NCBI RefSeq assembly: GCF_001412575.1
Contig: NZ_CP011834.1
Span: 1,488,001 to 1,552,000, forward strand
From: Limnohabitans sp. 103DPR2
Lineage (GTDB): Bacteria; Pseudomonadota; Gammaproteobacteria; Burkholderiales; Burkholderiaceae_C
DNA: 64,000 bases
Direction: 5' to 3'
Both the position numbers and the translations under genes were made by a program. The notes beneath the pieces were generated by a model that made no database searches, was not told the origin of the DNA, and worked only from the letters and a program-made list of their open reading frames with translations. Numbering within the stretch: position 1 is the stretch's first letter; each line of letters begins with the position of its first letter. Positions 5,088 to 57,620 of the stretch are shown here, one piece after another.

Positions 5088-6224
5088 TTAGGCGCCGAAC
5101 AAGCCTTTGAGTTTGTCGGTCCAGCTGTTGCCGGTTGGCATATGTTTGGCGCCGCCTTTTTGCAAAGACTCGTCAAACTCTTTGAGCAACTTGCGCTGAT
5201 GCTCCGTGAGCTTCACAGGTGTTTCAACCGTGATGTGACAGTAGAGGTCGCCAGGGTAACTGGCGCGAACACCCTTGATGCCTTTGCCGCGCAAACGGAA
5301 TTGCTTGCCCGTTTGGGTGCCTTCCGGAATGTCGATGGCGGCCTTGCCGTTGAGCGTAGGCACATCGATCTCACCACCCAATGCGGCCTTTGAAAAACTG
5401 ATGGGCACAGAGCAATGCAGGTCGTCGCCATCGCGCTCGAAGATGTCGTGTTTCTTGAGGCGAATTTCAATGTACAAATCGCCGGGCGGGCCGCCATTGG
5501 TACCCGGTTCACCGTTGCCGGTGCTGCGAATGCGCATGCCGTCGTCAATGCCCGCAGGGATTTTGACTTCGAGTGTTTTTTGCTTTTTGAGCTTACCTTG
5601 GCCACTGCAAGAAGGGCAGGGGTCTGAGATGATTTTGCCGGAGCCGCGGCAGTGCGGGCAGGTTTGCTGCACGCTGAAAAAGCCTTGGCGCATTTGCACG
5701 GTTCCTGAACCTTGGCAAGTGCCGCAGGTTTTTGCGCTGGTGCCTTTCTTAGCGCCGGAGCCATCGCAAGGCTCGCACTCTTCCCATCCGGGGATGCGAA
5801 TTTGGGCGTCTTTGCCAGCGGCCGCTTCCTCCAGGGTCACTTCCATGGCATAGCTCAGGTCGCCACCGCGGAACACTTGACGGCCACCACGGCCACCGCG
5901 TTGTTGACCAAAGATGTCACCAAAAATATCACCGAAGGCTTCGCCAAAACCACCAAAGCCTTCCGCACCGCCCGCGCCACCACGCATGTTGGGGTCGACA
6001 CCGGCGTGGCCGTATTGGTCGTAGGCGGCACGCTTTTGCGCATCCGACAACATCTCGTAGGCCTCTTTGACCTCTTTGAATTTGGCTTCTGCGTCTTTGG
6101 CGTCGTCGCCCTGATGACGGTCAGGGTGGAACTTCATCGCCAATTTGCGATACGCCTTTTTGATCTCTTCTTCAGAGGCGTTCTTGGCTACACCCAATAC
6201 TTCGTAAAAGTCTCTTTTGGCCAT
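5088..6224 (-). CDS. dnaJ: Chaperone DnaJ (Hsp40)
   Basis: A 378-residue type I Hsp40 that delivers unfolded clients to DnaK and stimulates its ATPase. The J-domain occupies residues 1-70 with the HPD tripeptide in KFHPDRHQG, followed by a Gly/Phe-rich linker (about 78-115). The zinc domain has the four repeats [24 protein letters not shown] and CPSCSGQG, and a C-terminal substrate-binding part follows. It lies 97 bases after dnaK on the same strand. That gap holds a small GGGC-TTTA-GCCC hairpin (6297-6308) without a U-tract and no clear sigma-32 promoter, so dnaJ is probably cotranscribed with dnaK. Confidence 0.97.
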
Positions 6225-6321
6225 CGTGTTTTGCTACTGTTTGAACAAGAACGCCGCGAAAGCGATTTCCGAAGGGATACGCTGACGCGGCGGCTTGGGC
6301 TAAAGCCCTTGAATGAAAGGC

Positions 6322-8253
6322 TTAGCCTTTTTTAACTTCTTTCACTTCTGCATCGACCACGTTGTCGTCTGCAGGTTTGGCGTCGGCACCTGGGCCGCCC
6401 GCTGCGCCACCGGCAGCTGCTTCTTTGGCTTGCATGTCGGCGTACATTTTTTCGCCCAGCTTTTGGCTGACGGTCATCAGGGCTTCGGTTTTGGCTTCGA
6501 TGGCGTCTTTGTCTTCGCCTTTCAAAGCTTCTTCCAATTCCTTCACGGCAGCTTCGATTTTGGTTTTTTCGTCGCCTTCAATCTTGTCGCCGTATTCGGT
6601 CAAGCTTTTCTTCACGCTGTGCACGGTGGCTTCGCCTGAGTTTTTCGCTTGAACGATTTCGAGTTTCTTCTTGTCGTCAGCAGCGTTCAACTCAGCGTCT
6701 TTCACCATCTGTTGAATTTCTTCTTCAGACAAACCAGAGTTGGCCTTGATGGTGATCTTGTTTTCTTTGCCAGTGCCTTTGTCTTTGGCGCCGACGTGCA
6801 AGATGCCGTTCGCGTCGATGTCAAAGGACACTTCAATTTGCGGTGTGCCGCGTGCTGCGGGTGGAATGCCTTCGAGGTTGAACTCGCCCAGCAACTTGTT
6901 GCCAGTGGCCATCTCGCGCTCGCCTTGGTAGACCTTGATGGTCACCGCAGGTTGATTGTCATCGGCCGTTGAGAAGGTCTGTGCAAACTTGGTGGGGATG
7001 GTGGTGTTCTTGGTGATCATTTTGGTCATCACGCCGCCCAGGGTTTCAATGCCCAAGGACAAAGGTGTGACGTCCAACAGCAACACGTCTTTGCGATCGC
7101 CAGACAAAACTTGACCTTGAATGGCAGCGCCCACGGCCACGGCTTCATCAGGGTTTACGTCTTTGCGTGGCTCTTTGCCAAAGAATTCTTTCACCTTGTC
7201 TTGCACTTTGGGCATGCGTGTCATGCCGCCGACCAAGATGATGTCGTCGATGTCAGACACACTCACGCCAGCGTCTTTGATGGCGGTGCGGCAGGGCGCA
7301 ATGGTGCGCTCGATCAACTCGTCGACCAGGCTTTCCAACTTGGCACGGCTGAGCTTGATGTTCAGGTGTTTAGGGCCTGTGGCATCGGCTGTGATGTAGG
7401 GCAGGTTGATGTCGGTGCCAGCAGAGCTGGACAGTTCGATCTTGGCTTTTTCAGCGGCTTCTTTCAAGCGCTGCAAGGCCAACACGTCTTTGGACAAATC
7501 AACGCCACTTTCTTTCTTGAACTCGGCAATGATGAAATCAATGATGCGTTGGTCAAAGTCTTCACCACCCAAGAAGGTGTCACCGTTGGTGGACAACACT
7601 TCGAATTGTTTTTCGCCATCAACGTCGGCAATCTCGATGATGGATACGTCAAAGGTACCGCCACCCAAGTCATACACGGCAATCTTGCGATCGCCTTTTT
7701 CAGTTTTGTCCAAACCGAAAGCCAATGCAGCAGCTGTCGGTTCGTTGATGATGCGCTTGACATCCAAACCAGCGATGCGGCCTGCATCTTTGGTGGCTTG
7801 ACGTTGTGCGTCATTGAAGTAAGCAGGCACCGTGATGACGGCTTCGGTCACTTCTTCGCCGAGATAGTCTTCGGCTGTTTTCTTCATCTTGCGCAACACT
7901 TCAGCGCTGATCTGTGGGGGCGCCAATTTGTTGCCACGCACTTCCACCCAAGCGTCGCCGTTGTCGGCTTTGGCAATGGTGTAAGGCATCAGGTCGATGT
8001 CTTTTTGAACTTCTTTTTCAGAGAACTTGCGACCGATCAAACGCTTCACGGCATACAGCGTGTTGCGAGGATTGGTAACGGCTTGACGCTTGGCGGATGC
8101 GCCGACCAAAATTTCGCCGTCTTCTTGGTACGCAATGATGGAAGGGGTGGTGCGCGCGCCTTCGGCGTTCTCAATCACCTTGGTGGTGTTGCCTTCCATG
8201 ATGGCCACACACGAGTTGGTGGTGCCCAAGTCAATGCCAATGATTCTTCCCAT
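6322..8253 (-). CDS. dnaK: Chaperone DnaK (Hsp70)
   Basis: A 643-residue Hsp70. The nucleotide-binding domain begins at [13 protein letters not shown] (residues 4-16) and includes the phosphate-2 loop [13 protein letters not shown] near residue 195; the substrate-binding domain begins after [13 protein letters not shown] near residue 392. The helical lid ends in an acidic/Lys tail ([12 protein letters not shown]), as is normal for proteobacterial DnaK. It is preceded by its own sigma-32-like promoter (8299-8323) and a good ribosome-binding site (GGAGAAG before the ATG), and is followed by dnaJ. Confidence 0.98.
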
Positions 8254-9015: not shown

Positions 9016-9051
9016 GCCTGTTGGCGTTAGGCCAACGGGACCTGAACTAAA

Positions 9052-9402
9052 TCAAGACAGTTCGAGCAGTTCGACGTCGAACTTGAGGGTTGCGTTGGGG
9101 GGGATGACGCCGCCAGCACCACGGGGGCCATAGCCTAAGTCAGATGGAATGATCAGGGTGCGCGCGCCACCGATTTTCATGCCGGCCACGCCTTCGTCCC
9201 AACCGCGAATGACCATGCCGGCGCCCAAGATGAATTGGAAAGGGTCTCGGCGGTCTTTGCTGGAGTCAAACTTGGCGCCTTGCTCGCCGTCTTTGTATAG
9301 CCAGCCTGTGTAATGCACAGTGACCGTTTGGCCTTTGGTGGCTTCGGCGCCGTCGCCGACCACGGTGTCTTCGTATTGCAGGCCTGTGGCTGTGGTGATC
9401 AT
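9052..9402 (-). CDS. FKBP-type peptidyl-prolyl cis-trans isomerase
   Basis: A 116-residue single-domain FKBP that would catalyse proline isomerisation in the cytoplasm. Typical motifs are VTVHYTGWLYKDG (residues about 25-37), FQFILGAGMVIRGWDEGVAGM and the C-terminal GAGGVIPPNATLKFDVELL. I chose the ATG at 9402 (MITTATGLQYEDT), which matches the usual family start; the longer frame adds non-conserved residues. It is a separate minus-strand gene with a hairpin (9431-9449) between it and the upstream FAH-family gene. Confidence 0.93.
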   Translation of the reverse strand: MITTATGLQYEDTVVGDGAEATKGQTVTVHYTGWLYKDGEQGAKFDSSKDRRDPFQFILGAGMVIRGWDEGVAGMKIGGARTLIIPSDLGYGPRGAGGVIPPNATLKFDVELLELS

Positions 9403-9430
9403 GGGGTGTCCTAGAAATGGGTCATAGAAA

Positions 9431-9449
9431 GGCCGGTGCAAGACCGGCC
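9431..9449 (-). terminator. Candidate terminator after the FAH-family gene
   Basis: On the minus strand GGCCGGT-cttgc-ACCGGCC is followed by TTTCT. The 7-bp GC-rich stem with a short U-tract lies 48 bases after the FAH-family stop and before the FKBP start. It would end the long minus-strand hydroxycinnamate array. The U-tract is short, so efficiency is uncertain. Confidence 0.5.
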
Positions 9450-9496
9450 AATGGCTGAATTATGCCAGTTGATGGGGCATCGGGAAGGTCTTGTAT

Positions 9497-10672
9497 TCAG
9501 TGCTTTGAGCGCTTGGCCAAGTCTTGCATCAGGGCGCGGATGCCATAGGTCCAAGGCGGTGCCTGGTCTGAGGTGGTCACTCGGTTGAAGAGGGTGCCCA
9601 ATTGCGGGGTGGTGATGGCCACCGTATCGCCCACCACATGGGTAAAGCCTTGCCCGGGGCCATGCCGGTCTTGGGTAGGGGCAAACATGGTGCCGAGAAA
9701 CAGCACCAGACCGTCGGGGTACTGGTGGTAGGGGCCAATGGCTTGCGCCGCTAAATCCAAGGGATCTCGACTGATTTGGCTAAGAGAACTGCTGCCTTGC
9801 ATGACAAAGCCTTCGGGGCCATGGAGCGCCATGCTGAGGTCTGTGGTTCTTACGTTGTCGATGGTGTACTGGCCATCAAACAAGCGGATGAAGGGGCCGA
9901 TGGCGCAGCTGGCATTGTTGTCTTTGGCTTTGCCCAAGAGCAGGGCGCTGCGGCCCTCAAAATCTCGCAAGTTGACATCGTTGCCCATGGCGGCGCCCAC
10001 CACATGGCCTTTGGAATTGATGACCAACACAATTTCCGGCTCGGGGTTGTTCCATGAACTGCCGGGATGCAAGCCCACATCAAAACCAGAACCCACAGCA
10101 CTCATGGCTTGCGACTTGGTGAAAATTTCTGCGTCAGGACCGATGCCCACTTCAAGGTACTGAGACCAAACGCCTTGCGCTACCAGCACTTCTTTCAGTT
10201 TCATGGCTTGTGCAGAGCCAGGTTTGACATTGCGAAGGTTGTCACCCATCACATCGATCACGGCTTTGCGCACACTTTCAGCTTTGGCGGCATCGCCTCG
10301 CGCTTGTTCTTCGATGACGCGCTCCAACATGCTGGCGACAAAGGTCACACCGGCCGCTTTGATGGCCTGCAAGTCAGTGGGTGCAAGGAACCAAGGTTGT
10401 TGTTCGTTGCGCTGTTGGGTATCGGTATTGGCCCACAAAGCTTCTGTGGACCAAGTTTTGCCATGGTGGTTTTTGACACTTGCGGCGACATTCTCGAGTT
10501 CCATCAAGTCGCTGCTGGTGAGTGCCAAGCCAGACAAGTCGGTGGTTTCGCTGGCGCCTACTTTGACAAGATAGGGTCCCTCGCCGGGAACCCAAATGCG
10601 GCCAATCAAAATGGCGTTGGCGGCATCATCGGGCAGCGTCTCTGCCAATGAAGGAAAGCTGGAATGTGACAA
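9497..10672 (-). CDS. Fumarylacetoacetate hydrolase-family protein (about 390 aa)
   Basis: A 391-residue member of the FAH superfamily, longer than the usual 280-residue type. The conserved C-terminal catalytic region includes GSGFDVGLHPGSSWNNPEPE (metal-binding acidic residues), GAAMGNDVNLRDFEGRSAL and KAKDNNASCAIGPFIRLFD. Only TTG starts are available; I prefer 10672 because GGGAG lies at proper spacing upstream, with 10687 (also TTG) as the alternative. It is last in the minus-strand array, after the MarR gene. FAH enzymes cut or dehydrate 2-keto or 1,3-diketo acids; the substrate here is not evident from sequence. Confidence 0.8.
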   Translation of the reverse strand: MSHSSFPSLAETLPDDAANAILIGRIWVPGEGPYLVKVGASETTDLSGLALTSSDLMELENVAASVKNHHGKTWSTEALWANTDTQQRNEQQPWFLAPTDLQAIKAAGVTFVASMLERVIEEQARGDAAKAESVRKAVIDVMGDNLRNVKPGSAQAMKLKEVLVAQGVWSQYLEVGIGPDAEIFTKSQAMSAVGSGFDVGLHPGSSWNNPEPEIVLVINSKGHVVGAAMGNDVNLRDFEGRSALLLGKAKDNNASCAIGPFIRLFDGQYTIDNVRTTDLSMALHGPEGFVMQGSSSLSQISRDPLDLAAQAIGPYHQYPDGLVLFLGTMFAPTQDRHGPGQGFTHVVGDTVAITTPQLGTLFNRVTTSDQAPPWTYGIRALMQDLAKRSKH

Positions 10673-10722
10673 GGCCGAGTCTCCCAAAGTGGTGATCTCT
10701 TGGGCCCTGAAAGTCGGTGCCC

Positions 10723-11184
10723 TTAGAGGTAGATTTTTTGCAGCAACGTGACCAAGGTTTGAACTTGGTTAGGCGTGAGTTTAGAGCCAATGTTCATTTC
10801 TAGCTCAGACGCTGTGGCTTCAGCTTTTTCCATGAGTTCTAAACCCTTGTCCGTTGGGTGCAGTCCCATGGCGCGGCCATCATGGGGGTGGGGCAGGCGC
10901 TCTAGCAGGCCACGAGATTCCAATGACTGCACCAAGCCCACTAAGTTGGGCGGCAAGATGTTCAGCGCGGCGCAAAGTTGACGCGAAGTGACGCCGGGGT
11001 TGTGAACCACCACCGACATCACTGAAAAATCGACAGGCTTCAAGTCGTAGACCGCCATGCGTTCTAAGAATTGGCTGATCACGGCGAGGGCCGCACGGCG
11101 TGCGTTGTAACCAATCAAGGTTTCAAGGTAGCTGGTGTCGACTTTGTCGACGGCCGCGATTGGATTTTTCACGCTGCTTGGCAT
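10723..11184 (-). CDS. MarR-family transcriptional regulator
   Basis: A 153-residue winged-helix dimeric regulator. The core is recognisable from SVMSVVVHNPGVTSRQLCAALNILPPNLVGLVQSLE (recognition-helix region, split here by position: about residues 58-93), followed by the wing RGLLERLPHPHDGRAMGLHPT. Its ATG lies inside the 3' end of the acyl-CoA dehydrogenase gene (16-base overlap). Regulators of this family (FerR/CouR type) repress hydroxycinnamate genes and are released by the aryl-CoA thioester; the position inside such a cluster suggests the same role here. A candidate operator is at 22980-22994. Confidence 0.88.
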   Translation of the reverse strand: MPSSVKNPIAAVDKVDTSYLETLIGYNARRAALAVISQFLERMAVYDLKPVDFSVMSVVVHNPGVTSRQLCAALNILPPNLVGLVQSLESRGLLERLPHPHDGRAMGLHPTDKGLELMEKAEATASELEMNIGSKLTPNQVQTLVTLLQKIYL

Positions 11185-12872
11185 TGCGTCTCAATGATGT
11201 GACTGCGCATGGCGAATTCAGGAAGCACCCATTGGCGGAAGGCTTTGGAGGGGGCTTGCCAACGGGTCTTTAATTCGGGTGTTTGTGCATTGAGCGTGGT
11301 ATCGATGCGCAGCCAAGCCCATTGCAACATGACCAAGGCCATGGCGCGCAAATAGTCGTCGGCCACCCGGTGGCCCAAGCTGGGGTCTTGGGGTGCCGCG
11401 CTCACAATGCTTTGTGTCAATTTGCGAAGCTGAGTGGCTTCTGCTGTTTCCGTCTGCGATTGGGCCTTCATGTCGTCCAGCAATTGGTTCAAGCTCTGGC
11501 CTCCATCGGCCATGATTTTGCGAACCACCAAATCGATGGCCTGAATTTCGTTGGTGCCCTCGTAAATCATGGCGACGCGCGCATCGCGCACGATTTGCTC
11601 AATGCCCCATTCACGTACATAACCGTGGCCTCCCAAGACTTGAAGGCAATCGCTGCCGCCATGAAAAGCTTGATGGGTGAAGGCGGCTTTCATCACAGGC
11701 GTCACCAAAGCGCACCAGCGTTGCGATTGGGCTGCGGTGTCTTTGTCTGCGTGTTTGATTCGGTCTAATTCCACTGCAGTTTGATAAGCCAACACGCGGC
11801 CGCCATCCACCCAAGCGCGTTGTGTGTTCAAGATGCGTTGGATGGCAGGATGCTCAATGATGAAATCGGCTTCGGCAGCAGACTTGGGTTTCACTTCTTG
11901 ACCTGCTGGCGCGCGCATCTGACGGCGCTCTCGGGCGTAAGCGTCGGCTTTTTGCCAAGCCGCATCCAGTAGGCCAATGCCTTGCATGGCCACGTGCAAT
12001 CGCGCAGCGTTCATCATGACGAACATGGCGTTCAGACCTTTGCCGGGTTCGCCGATGATCTCAGACAGGGCGTCATCAAAGCGCATCACACATGTGGGAC
12101 TGCCGTGAAGGCCCATCTTTTCTTCGATGCGGTCGCAATGCACAGCGCTACGTTCGCCATTGGGGTAAAACTTGGGCACCAAAAAGAGTGACAGACCTTT
12201 AGGGCCGGGCGGTGCATCGGGCAAACGTGCCAAGACCAAATGAACGATGTTGTCGGTGAGGTCGTGCTCGCCACCTGATATGAAAATCTTGGTGCCATTC
12301 AAGGCGTAGCGGCCATCGGCTTGCGGCGTGGCTTTGGTGCGCGACAAGCCCAAGTCACTGCCTGCGTGCGGTTCAGTCAGGCACATGGTGGCCAACCATT
12401 CACCAGTACCAACTTTGCTGAGGTAAGTTTCTTGGAGTGAGGGGCTTGCATAGTGCTTGATGCATTCATATGCGCCATGCAACAAACCAGGTGCCATGGT
12501 CCAGCCATGGTTGGCGGCTGACAGCATTTCATAAAGCATGATTTCCAAGACAGAGGGCAGGCCTTGTCCGCCATCTTCTGGTGCTGCAGAAAGCGCAGGC
12601 CAACCCGCTTGCCAAAACATTTGGTAGGCCGATTGAAAACCGGGTGGCATCGTCACTTTGCCGTCTTGCCACTTCGCGCCAATTTCATCGCCATCCCGGT
12701 TGAGTGGGGCGACCACTTCACCGACAAACTTGCCAGCTTCTTCCAACACTTGCTGCATCAGATCCGCATCGACTTCATCAAAGGCGGGCAATGCTTTCAG
12801 CTGATCGGGTGCACCTAAAACATTGGACAAGACAAATTGCATGTCTTGGATACGGGGTTGGTAGTCGCTCAT
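11169..12872 (-). CDS. Acyl-CoA dehydrogenase (long, 567 aa type)
   Basis: A 567-residue FAD-dependent acyl-CoA dehydrogenase of the extended type with an extra C-terminal domain (beyond about residue 460). The substrate/FAD motif MCLTEPHAGSDLGLSRT is near residue 160, and the C-terminal signature HGGSDCLQVLGGHGYVREWGIEQIVRDARV near 400-440 precedes YEGTNEIQ. It sits between livF and the marR gene, inside the hydroxycinnamate array. By context it may desaturate saturated phenylpropanoyl-CoAs (dihydroferuloyl- or dihydrocoumaroyl-CoA) so that they enter the same pathway; this is inference. Similar proteins are often annotated DmdC-like, but no dmd genes are here. Confidence 0.9.
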   Translation of the reverse strand: MSDYQPRIQDMQFVLSNVLGAPDQLKALPAFDEVDADLMQQVLEEAGKFVGEVVAPLNRDGDEIGAKWQDGKVTMPPGFQSAYQMFWQAGWPALSAAPEDGGQGLPSVLEIMLYEMLSAANHGWTMAPGLLHGAYECIKHYASPSLQETYLSKVGTGEWLATMCLTEPHAGSDLGLSRTKATPQADGRYALNGTKIFISGGEHDLTDNIVHLVLARLPDAPPGPKGLSLFLVPKFYPNGERSAVHCDRIEEKMGLHGSPTCVMRFDDALSEIIGEPGKGLNAMFVMMNAARLHVAMQGIGLLDAAWQKADAYARERRQMRAPAGQEVKPKSAAEADFIIEHPAIQRILNTQRAWVDGGRVLAYQTAVELDRIKHADKDTAAQSQRWCALVTPVMKAAFTHQAFHGGSDCLQVLGGHGYVREWGIEQIVRDARVAMIYEGTNEIQAIDLVVRKIMADGGQSLNQLLDDMKAQSQTETAEATQLRKLTQSIVSAAPQDPSLGHRVADDYLRAMALVMLQWAWLRIDTTLNAQTPELKTRWQAPSKAFRQWVLPEFAMRSHIIETQCQAA

Positions 12873-52847: not shown

Positions 52848-52941
52848 GTGAAAAAAACTCAGCCCCATCAGAGAGCAGGTCAAAGCCAAGACTGCAGAAT
52901 GCAAGAATGGTCATATCACCATCCAATTTCAGGAGATGCGC

Positions 52942-53448
52942 ATGTATTCCCTTAATGTGAACGGCAAAGTCCAAAAAGTGGACGCGGAGCCAGAGATGCC
53001 CTTGTTGTGGGTCATTCGAGAAGTCCTCGGCCTCACAGGCACCAAATTTGGCTGCGGCATTGCCCAGTGTGGTGCTTGTACGGTCCACGTCGATGGCCAA
53101 GCCATTCGTTCTTGCTCAATTCCAGGCTCTGCCATGACGGGCCGAAAAATCACCACCATTGAAGGTTTGTCTGCCAACAGCAGTCACCCTGTGCAAAAGG
53201 CTTGGGCCCAAGTGGATGTGCCGCAGTGCGGCTATTGCCAATCTGGGCAAATCATGGCGGCTTCGTCATTGTTGAAACGCAAACCAAAACCCACCGACAA
53301 AGACATCGATGAGGTCATGACCAACATCTGTCGCTGCGGCACCTACCAACGCATCCGCGAGGCCATTCATGTGGCCGCCGGCACCCGCAAATTACCCAAA
53401 ATGGATGCTGATGAAGTCAGTGCCTTGGTTCAGCAAATCAAAGTTTAA
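52942..53448 (+). CDS. [2Fe-2S] subunit of a molybdenum hydroxylase (IorA type)
   Basis: A 168-residue ferredoxin-like electron-transfer subunit. The first [2Fe-2S] cysteines are in [20 protein letters not shown] (near 36-55) with the fourth in RSCSIP; the second cluster is [10 protein letters not shown] and [14 protein letters not shown] near the C-terminus. The ATG at 52942 has AGGAG six bases upstream, ruling out the ATG at 52936. It is followed after 10 bases by the large subunit gene. The family includes isoquinoline 1-oxidoreductase and various aldehyde or N-heterocycle oxidases. Confidence 0.9.
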
Positions 53449-53458
53449 GGCGAGCACC

Positions 53459-55663
53459 ATGAATTCAATTTCAAATTCAATGGCGCCATTGTCGCGCCGC
53501 CGTTTCATGCTGGGAACTTCCGCCATGGCAGGCGGTGGACTGGCCCTGGGTATGAATATTTTTGCAAACCAGGAGGCCATGGCGCAAGCCACTGACGCTT
53601 CACCTGAAGTCGGCATTTGGGTCTTGGTCAAACCCGACGACACCTGCGTCATTCGCATTGTTCGCTCCGAAATGGGGCAGGGCACACGCACGGGTTTGGC
53701 CCAGTTGGTCGCCGAAGAGCTTGAGTGCGATTGGCGCAAAGTGACCACGGAGTCCCCAACGCCTGGACAAAACTTGAAACGCAAGCGCGCATGGGGTGAC
53801 ATGAGCACTGGTGGCAGTCGCGGCATTCGCATGTCGCATGACTACGTGCGCCGCGGTGGTGCTGTGGCACGAACCATGTTGATGCAAGCCGCTGCCAATG
53901 AATGGTCTGTGGCTGTCTCAGAATTGACAGTTGCCAACAGCGTCATCACGCACGCTGCATCGGGTCGAAAAACCACTTACGGCAAAGTGGCTGCTGCTGC
54001 GGCCAAGTTGCCCGTGCCCGATGCCAAGTCGATGGTGTTGAAAGATCCTCGAACTTGGAAAATTGCAGGCAAGTCCATTCGCCGTTTGGACACCAGCGAC
54101 AAACTCAATGGCAAAAAAATCTACGGCATTGACGTCAAGCTTGACGGTATGCTGTGCGCTGCCGTCATGGACTGTCCCGTTTTTGGTGGCAAGTTGGTCA
54201 GCTTTGATGACAGCAAAGTCAAATCTTTGCGCGGCGTTAAATCCGTGGTGCGCGTGGATGCCACGACGGTGGCAGTGGTGGCCGATACATGGTGGCGCGC
54301 CAAAAATGCGCTGGCCCAGTTGCCCATTGTGTGGGATGAAGGTCCGCATGCCAAAGTCAACAGCGCATTGATTGCCGCCCATTTGAAAGAGGGCCTGACA
54401 GCACCAGGCAACTATGCAGGCCGCAAAGAAGGCGATGCCATTGCGGCGGTGGCCAATGCCGTCAAAAAAGTAGAGGCCACGTACAGCACGCCATTCTTAG
54501 CGCATGCACCGATGGAGCCGATGAACTGCACAGCGCGCGTCACAGCGGATCGCGCAGAAGTATGGGCACCTACCCAAAATGCAGAAGCCTCTTTGGCCGT
54601 GTTGGCAGAGACATCGGGTTTGCCTTTGGAGAAGTGCGATGTCTACGTCACCGATTTGGGTGGCGCATTTGGTCGCAAGGGTGGTCAACAAGATTACGTG
54701 TCGCAAGCAGTCAAAATTGCCAAACAATTTCCAGGCACGCCCATCAAAATGATTTGGAGCCGTGAGGAAGATCAAGCACATGACTTCTACCGTCCCTTGT
54801 CGCAGTGTCACATGACCGCTGGCTTGGATGACAAAGGCAATTTGGTGGGCCTGACCTTGCGTTCTTCGGGTCAATCCATCAACGCATGGGTCAATCCTTC
54901 TGCCATCAAAGATGGCAAAGACGAACGCCAATTGCAGGGCTTCTGGAAAGAACCGGGCGAAGCGCAACTGGGTTACACCATTCCCAACTTGCTCACTGAA
55001 TACGCCATTCGAAACACCCACGTCCCTGTAGGCCCTTGGCGCGGTGTGAACACCAATCAAAATGGTGTGTACATGGAGTGCTTCATTGAAGAAGTGGCCA
55101 AAGCGGCAGGCAAAGATTCACTGGCTTTCCGTCAGTCACTGATGAAAAATCACCCCAAGCATTTGCAGGTCCTGAATGCCGCTGCAGAAAAAGGCGATTG
55201 GGGCAAACCTTTGCCAAAAGGCGTATTCCGCGGTATTGCCCAGTTCATGGGCTATGGTGCTTATTCCGCTGCGGTGGCCGAGGTCACCGTCAGTCCTCGC
55301 GGTGAAGTCAAAGTTCTGCGCATGGTGCTCGCCACCAATGCGGGTCACTTTGTCAATCCGCACCAAGTGGCTGCACAAGTTGAGGGCGGTGTGGCGATGG
55401 GCCTCAGTGCCACATTCTTTGGTGAATGCACGGTTGAGAATGGCCGTATTCAGCAAACCAATTTTGACACTTACCCCTTGCTGCGCATGGGCCAAATGCC
55501 CAAGGTCGAAACGGTCTTGGTGCCCACTTACGACTTCTGGGGTGGCGTGGGCGAGCCCACCATTTGCGTGGTGGCACCTGCTGTCATGAACGCTATTTTT
55601 GCAGCAACAGGCAAACCCGTTCGTGATTTGCCGCTGAAAAATGCGGGCCTCACATTTGTCTAA
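53459..55663 (+). CDS. Molybdopterin-binding subunit of a xanthine dehydrogenase-family oxidoreductase (IorB type)
   Basis: A 734-residue large subunit with a twin-arginine signal (SRRRFMLGTSAMAGGGLALG) at the N-terminus, so the mature enzyme is exported folded. The molybdenum-cofactor region includes GGAFGRKGGQQDYVSQAVKIA near residue 400 and VGPWRGVNTNQNGVYMECFIEEVAK near 525; the catalytic Glu is expected in GGVGEPT near the end. With the small subunit it hydroxylates an aldehyde or heteroaromatic substrate, passing electrons to a periplasmic acceptor, perhaps a c-type cytochrome. No FAD subunit is encoded, typical of this two-subunit type. Confidence 0.9.
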   Translation: MNSISNSMAPLSRRRFMLGTSAMAGGGLALGMNIFANQEAMAQATDASPEVGIWVLVKPDDTCVIRIVRSEMGQGTRTGLAQLVAEELECDWRKVTTESPTPGQNLKRKRAWGDMSTGGSRGIRMSHDYVRRGGAVARTMLMQAAANEWSVAVSELTVANSVITHAASGRKTTYGKVAAAAAKLPVPDAKSMVLKDPRTWKIAGKSIRRLDTSDKLNGKKIYGIDVKLDGMLCAAVMDCPVFGGKLVSFDDSKVKSLRGVKSVVRVDATTVAVVADTWWRAKNALAQLPIVWDEGPHAKVNSALIAAHLKEGLTAPGNYAGRKEGDAIAAVANAVKKVEATYSTPFLAHAPMEPMNCTARVTADRAEVWAPTQNAEASLAVLAETSGLPLEKCDVYVTDLGGAFGRKGGQQDYVSQAVKIAKQFPGTPIKMIWSREEDQAHDFYRPLSQCHMTAGLDDKGNLVGLTLRSSGQSINAWVNPSAIKDGKDERQLQGFWKEPGEAQLGYTIPNLLTEYAIRNTHVPVGPWRGVNTNQNGVYMECFIEEVAKAAGKDSLAFRQSLMKNHPKHLQVLNAAAEKGDWGKPLPKGVFRGIAQFMGYGAYSAAVAEVTVSPRGEVKVLRMVLATNAGHFVNPHQVAAQVEGGVAMGLSATFFGECTVENGRIQQTNFDTYPLLRMGQMPKVETVLVPTYDFWGGVGEPTICVVAPAVMNAIFAATGKPVRDLPLKNAGLTFV

Positions 55664-55699: not shown

Positions 55700-56485
55700 T
55701 CACCGTCTCAAGGAAGGCCCATCGACGGGCAGTCCTTGCGCGCGCATTTTGAGAAACAACTCCAGTTGACGCAGCGCTTGGCTGCCTGGCGCGGGCACGT
55801 CGGCTTGCACGCCAGAGAAGCAGGCGCGCAGGCGACGGTCAATCGAGCCCATGCTTTGCCAGCTCATTTTGAAAATGGGAAAGCCAGTGGGATGTCCGGG
55901 TGAAATCACGTCGGCGCGCATTTGTTTGCCAATGCTCAAATCATGACAATGCGTGCAGGCCAAATTCATGCGTCCCATGCGCGTGGTGAATTGCGCGGCG
56001 CCTTGGTTCAGTGCGTTTTGCCATTGCGATGCATCGCCCGGCGTTGCTGTGACTTGGTAGGGCATGCCTTGGCTGCTTTCGTGCAAGAGGGCACTCAAGG
56101 CCAAAACATCTGGATTCTCTAGACCCTTCATGGGTTTGCCACTGCGCTGCGCACAATCCAATATTTGATCTTCCAAATTGATCAACTGTTGTTTGGAGGG
56201 CGACCATTTTGGAAAGCGCGTCGCCACTGCCTTCATGTTTTGAACATCGCCATGGCATTGAAAACACGAGTTGGGCTGGTCGACTGCGCCCCATAAGGTG
56301 CGGCCTTGTTCTAACCACAATTGAACCGGGTTACGCGTTGCATCGTTTTGCATCGCCCGCAACTCAGGGCTTAAGAAGGCATTGCCACTGCGCTGTGCAG
56401 GCGGCAGCGTTTGTGCATTCAGAACGAGTGGCACCATGGCAAGAAACGCAAAGGCCATTCGCAAGCTCAAGCGACACCTCACCAT
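55700..56485 (-). CDS. soxA: SoxA, diheme cytochrome c of the thiosulfate-oxidising complex
   Basis: A 261-residue periplasmic cytochrome (signal about residues 1-24). Two CxxCH heme sites are seen: CFQCH near residue 75 and CTHCH near 177. The active-site cysteine that serves as heme ligand and thiol carrier is in RRLRACFSGVQADVP near 220. SoxAX conjugates thiosulfate to the SoxY cysteine. It is the last gene of a soxXYZA cluster with 3 bases between soxZ and soxA. Both CxxCH sites are retained, which marks it as the full diheme type. Confidence 0.92.
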   Translation of the reverse strand: MVRCRLSLRMAFAFLAMVPLVLNAQTLPPAQRSGNAFLSPELRAMQNDATRNPVQLWLEQGRTLWGAVDQPNSCFQCHGDVQNMKAVATRFPKWSPSKQQLINLEDQILDCAQRSGKPMKGLENPDVLALSALLHESSQGMPYQVTATPGDASQWQNALNQGAAQFTTRMGRMNLACTHCHDLSIGKQMRADVISPGHPTGFPIFKMSWQSMGSIDRRLRACFSGVQADVPAPGSQALRQLELFLKMRAQGLPVDGPSLRR

Positions 56486-56488
56486 GCT

Positions 56489-56818
56489 TCAGACCACCAA
56501 GCGCTGGACGGTTTCACCGGCTTGGCCTGAGTCATCGAGCCAGAGCACGCGCACCAGACCACCACCCGCAGGAACTTGCACAGGAAATGCCAAGTACACA
56601 GGCGAGGTCATGGCGGTGCCCAACTCTGCTTCCAAGATCAACTGGTCGTTGAGCAACACTTTGACGGTGTGAATGATGTTGCGCTGAATTTTGCGGCCTG
56701 AGTCGTCCACCCGAAAACCAGAGTCCATGGGGTGTGCGGCAGACCAGCGTGCCTCTAGGGTGGCGCCTGCTTTCAGAGGACCTGCAAAGGCCAATCGGGT
56801 CAGAATGGGGTTGCTCAT
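56489..56818 (-). CDS. soxZ: SoxZ thiosulfate-carrier partner
   Basis: A 109-residue immunoglobulin-like protein forming the heterodimer SoxYZ. The family segment SAAHPMDSGFRVDDSGRKI is near residues 26-44, and IIHTVKVLLN and AFPVQVPAGG follow. The ATG at 56818 overlaps the soxY stop (TGATG). It has no signal peptide, as usual, and is exported with SoxY. Confidence 0.92.
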   Translation of the reverse strand: MSNPILTRLAFAGPLKAGATLEARWSAAHPMDSGFRVDDSGRKIQRNIIHTVKVLLNDQLILEAELGTAMTSPVYLAFPVQVPAGGGLVRVLWLDDSGQAGETVQRLVV

Positions 56819-57258
56819 CAGGAGTCGTCCAAGCAAGCGGTCGACGTAATCACGGTGGGTGCGCTGTTGGCGCGCTCGAGCCCGTTGCTGAAGGTCGCCA
56901 AGACCCATACCGATTGGCTGGCGGCAAGACGCAGCCGCGTGTTGAGCAGGTAGCTTTGCGGTTCACCGTGCAGTTTCAGATGCAAGGCCAGAGGGTTGGG
57001 GTTCTCCGGCAAGATCACACGCAGTGATTTCAAGAAAGTACCTTCGGGTGCGCGGATGTTGGCTTGCAGTGGCACGGCATTGCCGGTATCGGCCAGCCGC
57101 GGAAATACCAATTCAATGCCTTCGCTTGGCAGTTCTGTCATGGGTGCAGCCGATGCCCGCTGCTGCGTCGTCAGCAGCCATGCGCCGGCGGCCCACAGCA
57201 TACCGGTTCGACGTTGCGAATTAACAGTCCCGCAAAGGGAGGGTGTGTTTATTGCCAT
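56818..57258 (-). CDS. soxY: SoxY-type carrier protein with atypical C-terminal arm
   Basis: A 146-residue periplasmic protein with an RR-containing N-terminal signal (SQRRTGMLWAAGAWLL). The mature domain follows the SoxY fold (ELVFPRLADTGNAVPLQANI and KSLRVILPENPNP). Canonical SoxY ends in GGCGG, where the cysteine carries the thiosulfate-derived sulfur. Here the protein ends TACLDDS: one cysteine is present five residues from the end but the glycines are replaced. It is coupled to soxX upstream by a 10-base overlap and to soxZ by TGATG. The function may be altered thiol chemistry; see findings. Confidence 0.88.
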   Translation of the reverse strand: MAINTPSLCGTVNSQRRTGMLWAAGAWLLTTQQRASAAPMTELPSEGIELVFPRLADTGNAVPLQANIRAPEGTFLKSLRVILPENPNPLALHLKLHGEPQSYLLNTRLRLAASQSVWVLATFSNGLERANSAPTVITSTACLDDS

Positions 57259-57620
57259 GATTGCAAAGTATCCACCACCTCGGAAATTTGCGCATCGGAC
57301 AAGATGGCACGGGGTGGGTTAGCTTTTGTCAGACCCTCCGTTGCGCCAAACGGCGGCATGAGGGTTTGCGGGTTCATCTGCCGGGCATCTTTCACCCATT
57401 GCGTCAGTTCAGCACGGTTCCACTTGCGTGCCACACCTTGGAGAGAAGGGCCGAAGGTGCTGACCAAGCCCTCTACCCCTGGCAACGCATGGCAAGCGAT
57501 GCAATTGCCTGTTTGTCGCGAGGTCATGATCTCAAAGCCAGCGGATCTGGCCGGAGAGGCCTCCGCCAAGGCCATGGCTGGGCTGAGGCTCACCGACATG
57601 CAAAGTAGAAAGCATTTCAT
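57249..57620 (-). CDS. soxX: SoxX, monoheme cytochrome c
   Basis: A 123-residue periplasmic cytochrome with a signal peptide (about residues 1-20) and a single heme site GNCIACHALPG near residue 39. The probable axial methionine is in TLMPPFGATEG near 87. It pairs with SoxA as the AX heterodimer. It is the first gene of the minus-strand soxXYZA cluster and overlaps soxY by 10 bases. No soxB, soxC or soxD is in the window. Confidence 0.9.
   Translation of the reverse strand: MKCFLLCMSVSLSPAMALAEASPARSAGFEIMTSRQTGNCIACHALPGVEGLVSTFGPSLQGVARKWNRAELTQWVKDARQMNPQTLMPPFGATEGLTKANPPRAILSDAQISEVVDTLQSWQ

What the first reader, a model, noticed from the sequence alone, without database searches (positions are those of the whole stretch)
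55700..57620. Stand-alone soxXYZA operon with a SoxY lacking the GGCGG arm
Four minus-strand genes with overlapping or near-touching ends encode SoxX, SoxY, SoxZ and a diheme SoxA. SoxA keeps its active-site cysteine (RACFSG) and SoxX its heme, yet SoxY ends TACLDDS instead of GGCGG, with a cysteine five residues from the C-terminus. No soxB, soxC or soxD is nearby. The carrier arm could therefore accept a different thiol substrate or interact with different partner enzymes. It lies between a Mo hydroxylase and a second ring-cleavage dioxygenase, an unexpected neighbourhood.
Basis: partly seen in the sequence, partly recalled or inferred. Interest (0 to 1): 0.7.

Follow-up and report, generated by a model that had tools for sequence, protein, structure and literature searches.

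The report
Sulfur-carrier genes paired with molybdenum enzyme
Next to a molybdenum enzyme, many bacteria carry a second, altered copy of four sulfur-oxidation genes whose carrier protein ends in a different cysteine tail, and its steady pairing with that enzyme suggests an unstudied periplasmic reaction that can now be tested.

Summary
The operon is real. Window SoxY ends TACLDDS, not GGCGG, and the tail is no error: same-genus relatives share it and the gene is under purifying selection. SoxY proteins with an xAC arm (mostly AAC, SAC, TAC) separate from GGCGG loci at 99/99 in a SoxY+SoxZ+SoxA tree built without the arm. NCBIfam already names part of this clade "SoxY-related AACIE arm protein" (TIGR04487); the window protein misses its cut-off (46 of 172 bits). 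"Stand-alone" is wrong twice. A conventional sox cluster lies about 336 kb away in the same genome. And the adjacent Mo hydroxylase is the regular partner: found at 37 of 37 xAC loci fetched, and conversely 68 of 71 evaluable Mo-hydroxylase loci carry an xAC-arm soxY. Many loci add a flavocytochrome-c-like gene. SoxB is missing from 8 of 48 such genomes, four of them rated 100% complete. Best reading: a Sox-type carrier module dedicated to a periplasmic xanthine-oxidase-family Mo enzyme, charged by SoxAX but not dependent on SoxB. Substrate unknown. Ten literature searches showed no description of the pairing, but most listed papers were not opened.

The parts
57249..57620 (-). soxX paralogue, monoheme c-type cytochrome (CIACH)
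   Evidence: TIGR04485 68.6 bits over cut-off 61
56818..57258 (-). soxY paralogue with xAC-type carrier arm
   Evidence: PF13501 47.3 bits; TIGR04487 46 bits, below cut-off 172; its locus falls in the xAC clade at 99/99
56821..56841 (-). arm codons TACLDDS; Cys codon at 56833-56835
   Evidence: translation; aligned with 32 other xAC-arm proteins, A and C invariant
56489..56818 (-). soxZ paralogue
   Evidence: PF08770 57.1 bits; TIGR04490 54.2 bits, below cut-off 76
55700..56485 (-). soxA paralogue, diheme, with active-site Cys (RAC)
   Evidence: TIGR04484 174.4 bits; aligned to 1h31 SoxA; Cys kept in 100 of 100 xAC-locus SoxA proteins aligned
52936..53448 (+). 2Fe-2S subunit of the Mo hydroxylase
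   Evidence: PF01799 and PF00111
53459..55663 (+). Mo hydroxylase large subunit with twin-arginine (SRRRF) export motif; the ORF opens at 53369, start inferred at 53459
   Evidence: PF02738 and PF20256; nearest solved structure by sequence 8gy3_C, aldehyde dehydrogenase large subunit, E 1.9e-70

Best explanation
The window holds one divergent copy of a conserved periplasmic module: 2Fe-2S subunit + xanthine-oxidase-family Mo hydroxylase (+ a flavocytochrome-c-like pair in many loci) + SoxX, SoxY with an xAC-type arm, SoxZ, SoxA. Shown here: gene linkage, the separate clade, the conserved arm cysteine, conserved SoxA hemes and active-site cysteine, twin-arginine motifs, purifying selection, and existence without SoxB. 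Inferred: SoxAX oxidatively joins a sulfur compound (thiosulfate, polysulfide or another anionic thiol) to the arm cysteine as a disulfide, as proposed for the ordinary Sox pathway. The altered arm then presents this adduct to the Mo enzyme rather than to SoxB/SoxCD. The Mo enzyme oxidises it and hands electrons to the 2Fe-2S subunit and c-type cytochromes. The flavocytochrome, where present, oxidises sulfide or sulfane released on the way.
For: SoxY-selected loci: Mo hydroxylase within a few kb at 37 of 37 (19 + 18), also at L014. Mo-hydroxylase-selected named loci: 67 of 80 have an xAC-arm soxY downstream on the same strand and 0 of 80 have soxB; with L109 (arm read in another frame) that is 68 of 71 with usable flank. 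Three plasmids carry the module: two with all genes annotated and overlapping or within 30 bp, one with the Mo gene found by tblastn only. GGCGG loci with at least 5 kb of flank (L005, L103, L104, L189, L190): soxB in 5 of 5, Mo hydroxylase in 0 of 5. The xAC loci are one side of a 99/99 branch with arm columns removed. SoxB absent in 8 of 48 xAC genomes, including G434, G421, G194 and G334 at 100% completeness, which show one SoxY match each. G194 and G334 have a single MoCoBD_1 match and the module. SoxA: both CxxCH and the active Cys in 100 of 100; Arg at -4 from Cys in 100 of 100; a second anion-binding position is R in 91 and K in 9. MoHydL-SoxY distance correlation 0.62 equals MoHydL-2FeS 0.62 (not corrected for phylogeny).
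Against: No biochemical data, and linkage does not prove that the arm enters the Mo enzyme. Of the named loci with usable flank, 3 of 71 (L149, L177, L181) have the Mo enzyme without sox. L048 has soxYZ without adjacent soxXA. 40 of 48 xAC genomes also have SoxB, so help in trans is possible there. In the window and its nearest relatives the two halves are convergent rather than one operon. XO-family enzymes classically hydroxylate carbon, not sulfur (established knowledge), so the chemistry on the arm is unspecified. The loci were mostly picked by best score, so weaker members may behave differently.
Confidence: 0.5

Rival explanations
1. Redundant or accessory thiosulfate carrier: the xAC-arm SoxXYZA feeds the SoxB and SoxCD of the conventional locus in trans, and the Mo hydroxylase is a linked passenger.
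For: Conventional locus in the same genome; SoxB in 40 of 48 xAC genomes; SoxA active site kept.
Against: Genomes rated 100% complete with the module and no SoxB; separate clade with a different arm; two-way linkage to the Mo enzyme in chromosomes and on plasmids.
Confidence: 0.15
2. Maturation or repair: xAC-SoxYZ carries sulfane sulfur to rebuild the sulfido ligand of the exported Mo enzyme.
For: XO-family enzymes need a terminal sulfido ligand (established knowledge); the enzyme has a twin-arginine motif (RR in 103 of 105 by a loose test); in G194 and G334 it is the only MoCoBD_1 match.
Against: XdhC/CoxI, the usual sulfuration factor, is found in 26 of 26 xAC genomes tested and lies just downstream of soxA in G434, G421, G194 and G334 (coordinates; sequence seen for G334); four to six sulfur genes seem too many for repair.
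Confidence: 0.15
3. Electron-transfer link only: SoxX/SoxA serve as c-type cytochromes for the Mo enzyme and SoxYZ is a hitch-hiker.
For: The closest structure by sequence is an aldehyde dehydrogenase of a kind that uses cytochrome c (recalled).
Against: The arm cysteine and preceding Ala are invariant in the 33-sequence alignment and the SoxA active-site Cys in 100 of 100, which electron transfer alone would not require.
Confidence: 0.08
4. Frameshift, sequencing error or decaying copy.
For: The window locus is on a long branch and SoxY is below the family cut-offs.
Against: Same tail in other same-genus genomes; dN/dS 0.04-0.16 for the four sox genes against three relatives.
Confidence: 0.01

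Closest known systems
NCBIfam TIGR04487, SoxY-related AACIE arm protein
   Same: Top NCBIfam hit of the window SoxY. The 14 loci over its cut-off all sit in the same Mo-hydroxylase plus soxXYZA module (L050, L085-L097), and the name is used inside that module in public records.
   Different: Window SoxY scores 46 bits against a cut-off of 172 and has TACLDDS. The library output gives only the name; I saw no statement of function or of a Mo partner.
Conventional Sox pathway (SoxXYZABCD, GGCGG SoxY)
   Same: SoxYZ carrier with C-terminal Cys; SoxAX with a Cys heme ligand in SoxA; twin-arginine-type SoxY.
   Different: Arm xAC-type; no soxB/soxCD in the locus; a Mo hydroxylase of another fold family as regular neighbour.
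TIGR04557, quinoprotein dehydrogenase-associated SoxYZ-like carrier (ped cluster)
   Same: A SoxYZ-like carrier attached to a periplasmic dehydrogenase rather than to SoxB (PMC12997753, passages read).
   Different: Fused YZ and PQQ enzyme; no SoxXA named in the passages seen. Window SoxY hits the model at only 35.4 bits (cut-off 140).
XO-family aldehyde dehydrogenases (8gy3)
   Same: Large and 2Fe-2S subunits; nearest solved relative by sequence, E 1.9e-70.
   Different: Linked to Sox carrier genes; substrate unknown.
soxYZ with flavocytochrome c in SAR324 bacteria (PMC4782131)
   Same: The authors propose a novel incomplete-sox mechanism from soxYZ flanking a sulfide dehydrogenase (passages read).
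   Different: No further sox subunits recovered in those bins; isoquinoline 1-oxidoreductase is mentioned for these genomes but not as a neighbour; the arm is not described in the passages.

Membership tests
Conventional SoxY (TIGR04488) | C-terminal GGCGG arm | tested here: not met
   ends TACLDDS
Conventional SoxY (TIGR04488) | score over curated cut-off 125 | tested here: not met
   44.7 bits
Conventional SoxY (TIGR04488) | soxB in the same locus | tested here: not met
   the genome's one soxB is about 340 kb away beside the GGCGG soxY
AACIE-arm SoxY (TIGR04487) | score over curated cut-off 172 | tested here: not met
   46 bits; 14 of 398 genomes pass it
xAC-arm SoxY (broad clade) | x-A-C arm, mostly followed by an aliphatic or Thr and an acidic residue | tested here: met
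   alignment of 33; tails; variants LAC (L027), GAC (L187), ASC (L182)
xAC-arm SoxY (broad clade) | groups with xAC loci, apart from GGCGG, without the arm columns | tested here: met
   99/99, 98% of 200 bootstrap trees
xAC-arm SoxY (broad clade) | neighbouring soxX, soxZ, soxA and Mo hydroxylase | tested here: met
SoxA (TIGR04484) | score over cut-off; hemes; active-site Cys | tested here: met
   174.4 bits
SoxX (TIGR04485) | score over cut-off 61 | tested here: met
   68.6 bits
SoxZ (TIGR04490) | score over cut-off 76 | tested here: not met
   54.2 bits; Pfam SoxZ passes
XO-family Mo hydroxylase | MoCoBD domains plus 2Fe-2S partner | tested here: met
XO-family Mo hydroxylase | bound Mo cofactor with sulfido ligand, hydroxylase activity | not testable with these tools
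   needs purified enzyme
Sox thiosulfate pathway | thiosulfate conjugated to the SoxY arm by SoxAX | not testable with these tools
   residues conserved, activity unknown

The most novel reading that the evidence does not exclude
The xAC-arm SoxYZ is a carrier for organic thiols: SoxAX ties an organosulfur thiol to the arm as a mixed disulfide, the Mo hydroxylase attacks the carbon next to sulfur, and a persulfide is left on the arm whose sulfur goes to the flavocytochrome. This would be carrier-bound C-S oxidation, a pathway type that none of my searches showed.
Probability: 0.15. Interest if true: 0.9.

Novelty: new variant of a known kind. Interest (0 to 1): 0.62.

Why it matters
xAC-arm soxXYZA sets can be annotated as thiosulfate oxidation genes (for example the SoxY of Roseomonas marmotae). 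If they serve a Mo hydroxylase instead, sulfur-cycle predictions from soxA/soxX/soxY counts are inflated in many Alpha- and Betaproteobacteria. It would also give the AACIE-arm family a partner and a testable function, and be a second case, after the quinoprotein-associated carrier, of a Sox-type carrier serving a dehydrogenase.

Tried and rejected
Considered and rejected: sequencing error or pseudogene. Pure redundancy with the conventional locus. Sox as the main Mo-sulfuration system (XdhC found in 26 of 26). A further constant partner: clustering ORFs of the 80 named loci gave no other gene near the frequency of the module itself. The clusters of 7-24 loci that I looked at were reverse-frame or overlapping-frame shadows of the module or generic neighbours. 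Two very large clusters were merged and not resolved.

Literature. Ten searches of the held library listed no title or abstract start on this pairing; 'AACIE arm' gave 0 papers. I read passages of nine papers. The other papers were seen in listings only, one listing was cut at 20 of 36, and only open-licence papers are held. I made no structure prediction.

Full report
Observation. The four genes are as described. SoxX and SoxA pass their NCBIfam cut-offs. SoxY and SoxZ pass Pfam but not the NCBIfam models for conventional SoxY/SoxZ. The best NCBIfam hit of SoxY is TIGR04487, 'SoxY-related AACIE arm protein', at 46 bits against a cut-off of 172.

Genome context. The window is G000:C1:1488001-1552000 of a one-contig 2.95 Mb genome; its organism was not identified. 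Two SoxY and two SoxZ genes were found. The second pair belongs to a conventional cluster with soxB, soxC, GGCGG soxY, soxZ, soxA and soxX. A cytochrome gene lies where soxD would be; its NCBIfam hits are only generic cytochromes. So the set is not the only Sox system of the cell.

The arm. Among 120 related genomes a search with the window SoxY found 49 with a match. I read the SoxY ends in the 30 loci it returned. The nearest same-genus ones end TSTACLDDS, TSTACLDES or TSTACLDGT; others end ESACVDAS, ESACLDES, TSACTEEP, ELACLEGG (L027) and similar. A scan of 398 genomes drawn from the phylum with TIGR04487 gave 112 genomes with a match and 14 over the cut-off. Of its 30 loci, 19 (L055-L073) end in xAC arms and 11 (L074-L084) in GGCGG. 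In a 33-sequence alignment the Cys and the Ala before it are invariant. In the wider set one arm reads ASC (L182), one GAC (plasmid L187) and several PAC or SAC.

Clade. A maximum-likelihood tree of SoxY+SoxZ+SoxA (50 loci: 38 chosen from 105 xAC loci on hand, and all 12 GGCGG loci; arm columns removed; L048 and L083 lacking parts) puts the xAC loci on one side of a 99/99 branch, seen in 98% of 200 bootstrap trees. Two GGCGG rows (L005, L084) have long end branches, and five (L078, L079, L080, L083, L104) have an odd letter make-up. The tree does not show which arm came first.

The partner, from SoxY. I fetched wider regions for 20 of the 57 places listed and for 20 of the places listed, mostly the best-scoring ones. 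In the 37 xAC loci among these (L036-L054, L085-L102) a MoCoBD-type Mo hydroxylase lies within a few kb in 37 of 37; in L042 its 2Fe-2S gene is cut off by the contig end. In the two GGCGG loci (L103, L104) it is absent and soxB is present. L014 (3.1 kb contig) also holds both.

The partner, in reverse. An xAC-arm soxY follows within 6 kb on the same strand in 67 of 80, and soxB is in 0 of 80. Of the other 13: L109 has an xAC arm in another frame; L162 shows soxX and the start of soxY at a contig end; eight have only 64-1009 bases after the Mo gene (L131, L135, L147, L150, L153, L157, L164, L178); three have room but no sox (L149, L177, L181). That is 68 of 71 evaluable loci. The scan favours close relatives of the query, so it measures linkage within this clade, not in all Mo hydroxylases. 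Of the 12 GGCGG loci on hand, none shows the Mo gene and 7 show soxB; nine of the 12 have flanks of only about 1.5 kb.

Plasmid sample. A SoxY search of plasmids matched 51 records. I opened six and annotated them by script. Methylobacterium sp. NMS14P and Neorhizobium galegae carry 2Fe-2S, Mo gene, FAD protein, soxX, 'AACIE arm' soxY, soxZ, soxA; in the second the Mo gene is not in the feature table and was found by tblastn in two pieces. Roseomonas marmotae has the same set with cytochrome and FAD gene after soxA and an arm LGACVETG. The Methylosinus and Indioceanicola hits are GGCGG with soxB and no Mo gene. A Sinorhizobium meliloti pSymA hit is a third type (below).

Extra genes. An FccB-like flavoprotein lies between the Mo gene and soxX in 17 of the 67 loci, after soxA on the same strand in 7 (L113, L115, L119, L127, L146, L151, L167), and nearby on the other strand in 3; 14 of the 37 SoxY-selected loci also have it. 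The four examples scanned (L086, L088, L098, L100) scored best against a sulfide:quinone reductase model, far below its cut-off; the FccB identification rests on motifs that I recall. In G334 the ORFs after soxA read as an XdhC/MobA-like fusion and TSUP-like, MoaA-like and MoaE-like proteins (XdhC by PF02625; the others by my reading of the sequences).

Independence from SoxB. Of 50 genomes tested for TIGR04486, 48 hold an xAC-type SoxY (arms) and 40 of these 48 have SoxB. Missing in eight: G008, G042 (drafts, 79 and 90% complete), G076, G083 (96, 98%), G434, G421, G194, G334 (100%). The last four show one SoxY match each. G194 and G334 show one MoCoBD_1 match each, and each holds the module.

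Catalytic parts. SoxA at 100 xAC loci (of 105; the rest lack a complete soxA) keeps two CxxCH and the active Cys in 100 of 100, with G three residues after the Cys in 98. The 11 GGCGG SoxA proteins have Q, N or D there. The Arg four residues before the Cys, which by PMC4423706 (passages read) should be the Arg invariant in TsdA and SoxA, is kept in all. A second Arg that the paper calls invariant in SoxA aligns, by my own count from 1h31, with a position that is R in 91 and K in 9 xAC proteins; the window has K. So anion-binding disulfide chemistry looks preserved. The Mo enzyme's nearest solved relative by sequence is an aldehyde dehydrogenase large subunit (8gy3_C). An RR precedes the mature part in 103 of 105 Mo proteins and 105 of 105 SoxY (a loose test).

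Selection and co-inheritance. dN/dS against L036-L038 is 0.04-0.06 for soxY, 0.04-0.08 for soxZ, 0.12-0.16 for soxX and soxA, 0.02-0.04 for the Mo gene (against L039 synonymous sites are saturated for soxX and soxY). Over 98 loci the distance matrices of MoHydL and SoxY correlate at 0.62, as high as MoHydL with its own 2Fe-2S subunit (0.62); sox genes among themselves reach 0.86-0.91. These values are not corrected for shared descent.

Mechanism. I commit to a carrier module: SoxAX loads the arm, the Mo enzyme replaces SoxB/SoxCD as the consumer, and cytochromes take the electrons. That the six genes act together I hold at about 0.85; that the loaded arm itself is the Mo enzyme's substrate at about 0.5. 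The substrate is open.

Known or new. The AACIE-arm family name is known (TIGR04487). I did not find in print the two-way linkage to a Mo hydroxylase, the SoxB-free genomes or the placement of TACLDDS-type arms in the clade, in ten library searches and in passages of the nine papers opened. The nearest remark seen is in PMC4782131: soxYZ beside a flavocytochrome c in SAR324 bins, read there as a possible novel mechanism. It may be described in papers not held or not opened.

Noticed in passing
L188 (S. meliloti KH46 pSymA) 6001-6342: A third SoxY arm type: ends ATNGCL, followed by soxZ and an FccB-like gene, with no soxB or Mo-hydroxylase hit in 12 kb; a weak soxA-like hit (26%) lies on the other strand.
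   Followed up: no
L177 (Reyranella sp. CPCC 100927) 9016-12469: The Mo hydroxylase of this clade is followed at once by an FccB-like gene and no sox genes; one motif reads NTSYS where another FccB-like protein (L086) reads NTCYS.
   Followed up: no
window 55700-57620 and 53459-55663 against L037: Mosaic divergence: synonymous distance to L037 is 0.15 for the Mo gene but 0.7-2.0 for the sox genes, suggesting recombination between the two halves.
   Followed up: no
L052 8702-13379: Rearranged same-genus version: soxX and soxA upstream of the 2Fe-2S and Mo genes, soxY and soxZ downstream, all on one strand.
   Followed up: no
L101 10430-14442: Module followed by XdhC/MobA-like fusion, TSUP-like permease, MoaA-like and MoaE-like genes in a genome without a SoxB match.
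   Followed up: partly
L150: A contig titled Candidatus Rokuibacteriota holds the Mo hydroxylase and 2Fe-2S gene; the contig ends 769 bases later, so whether the module leaves Pseudomonadota is open.
   Followed up: no
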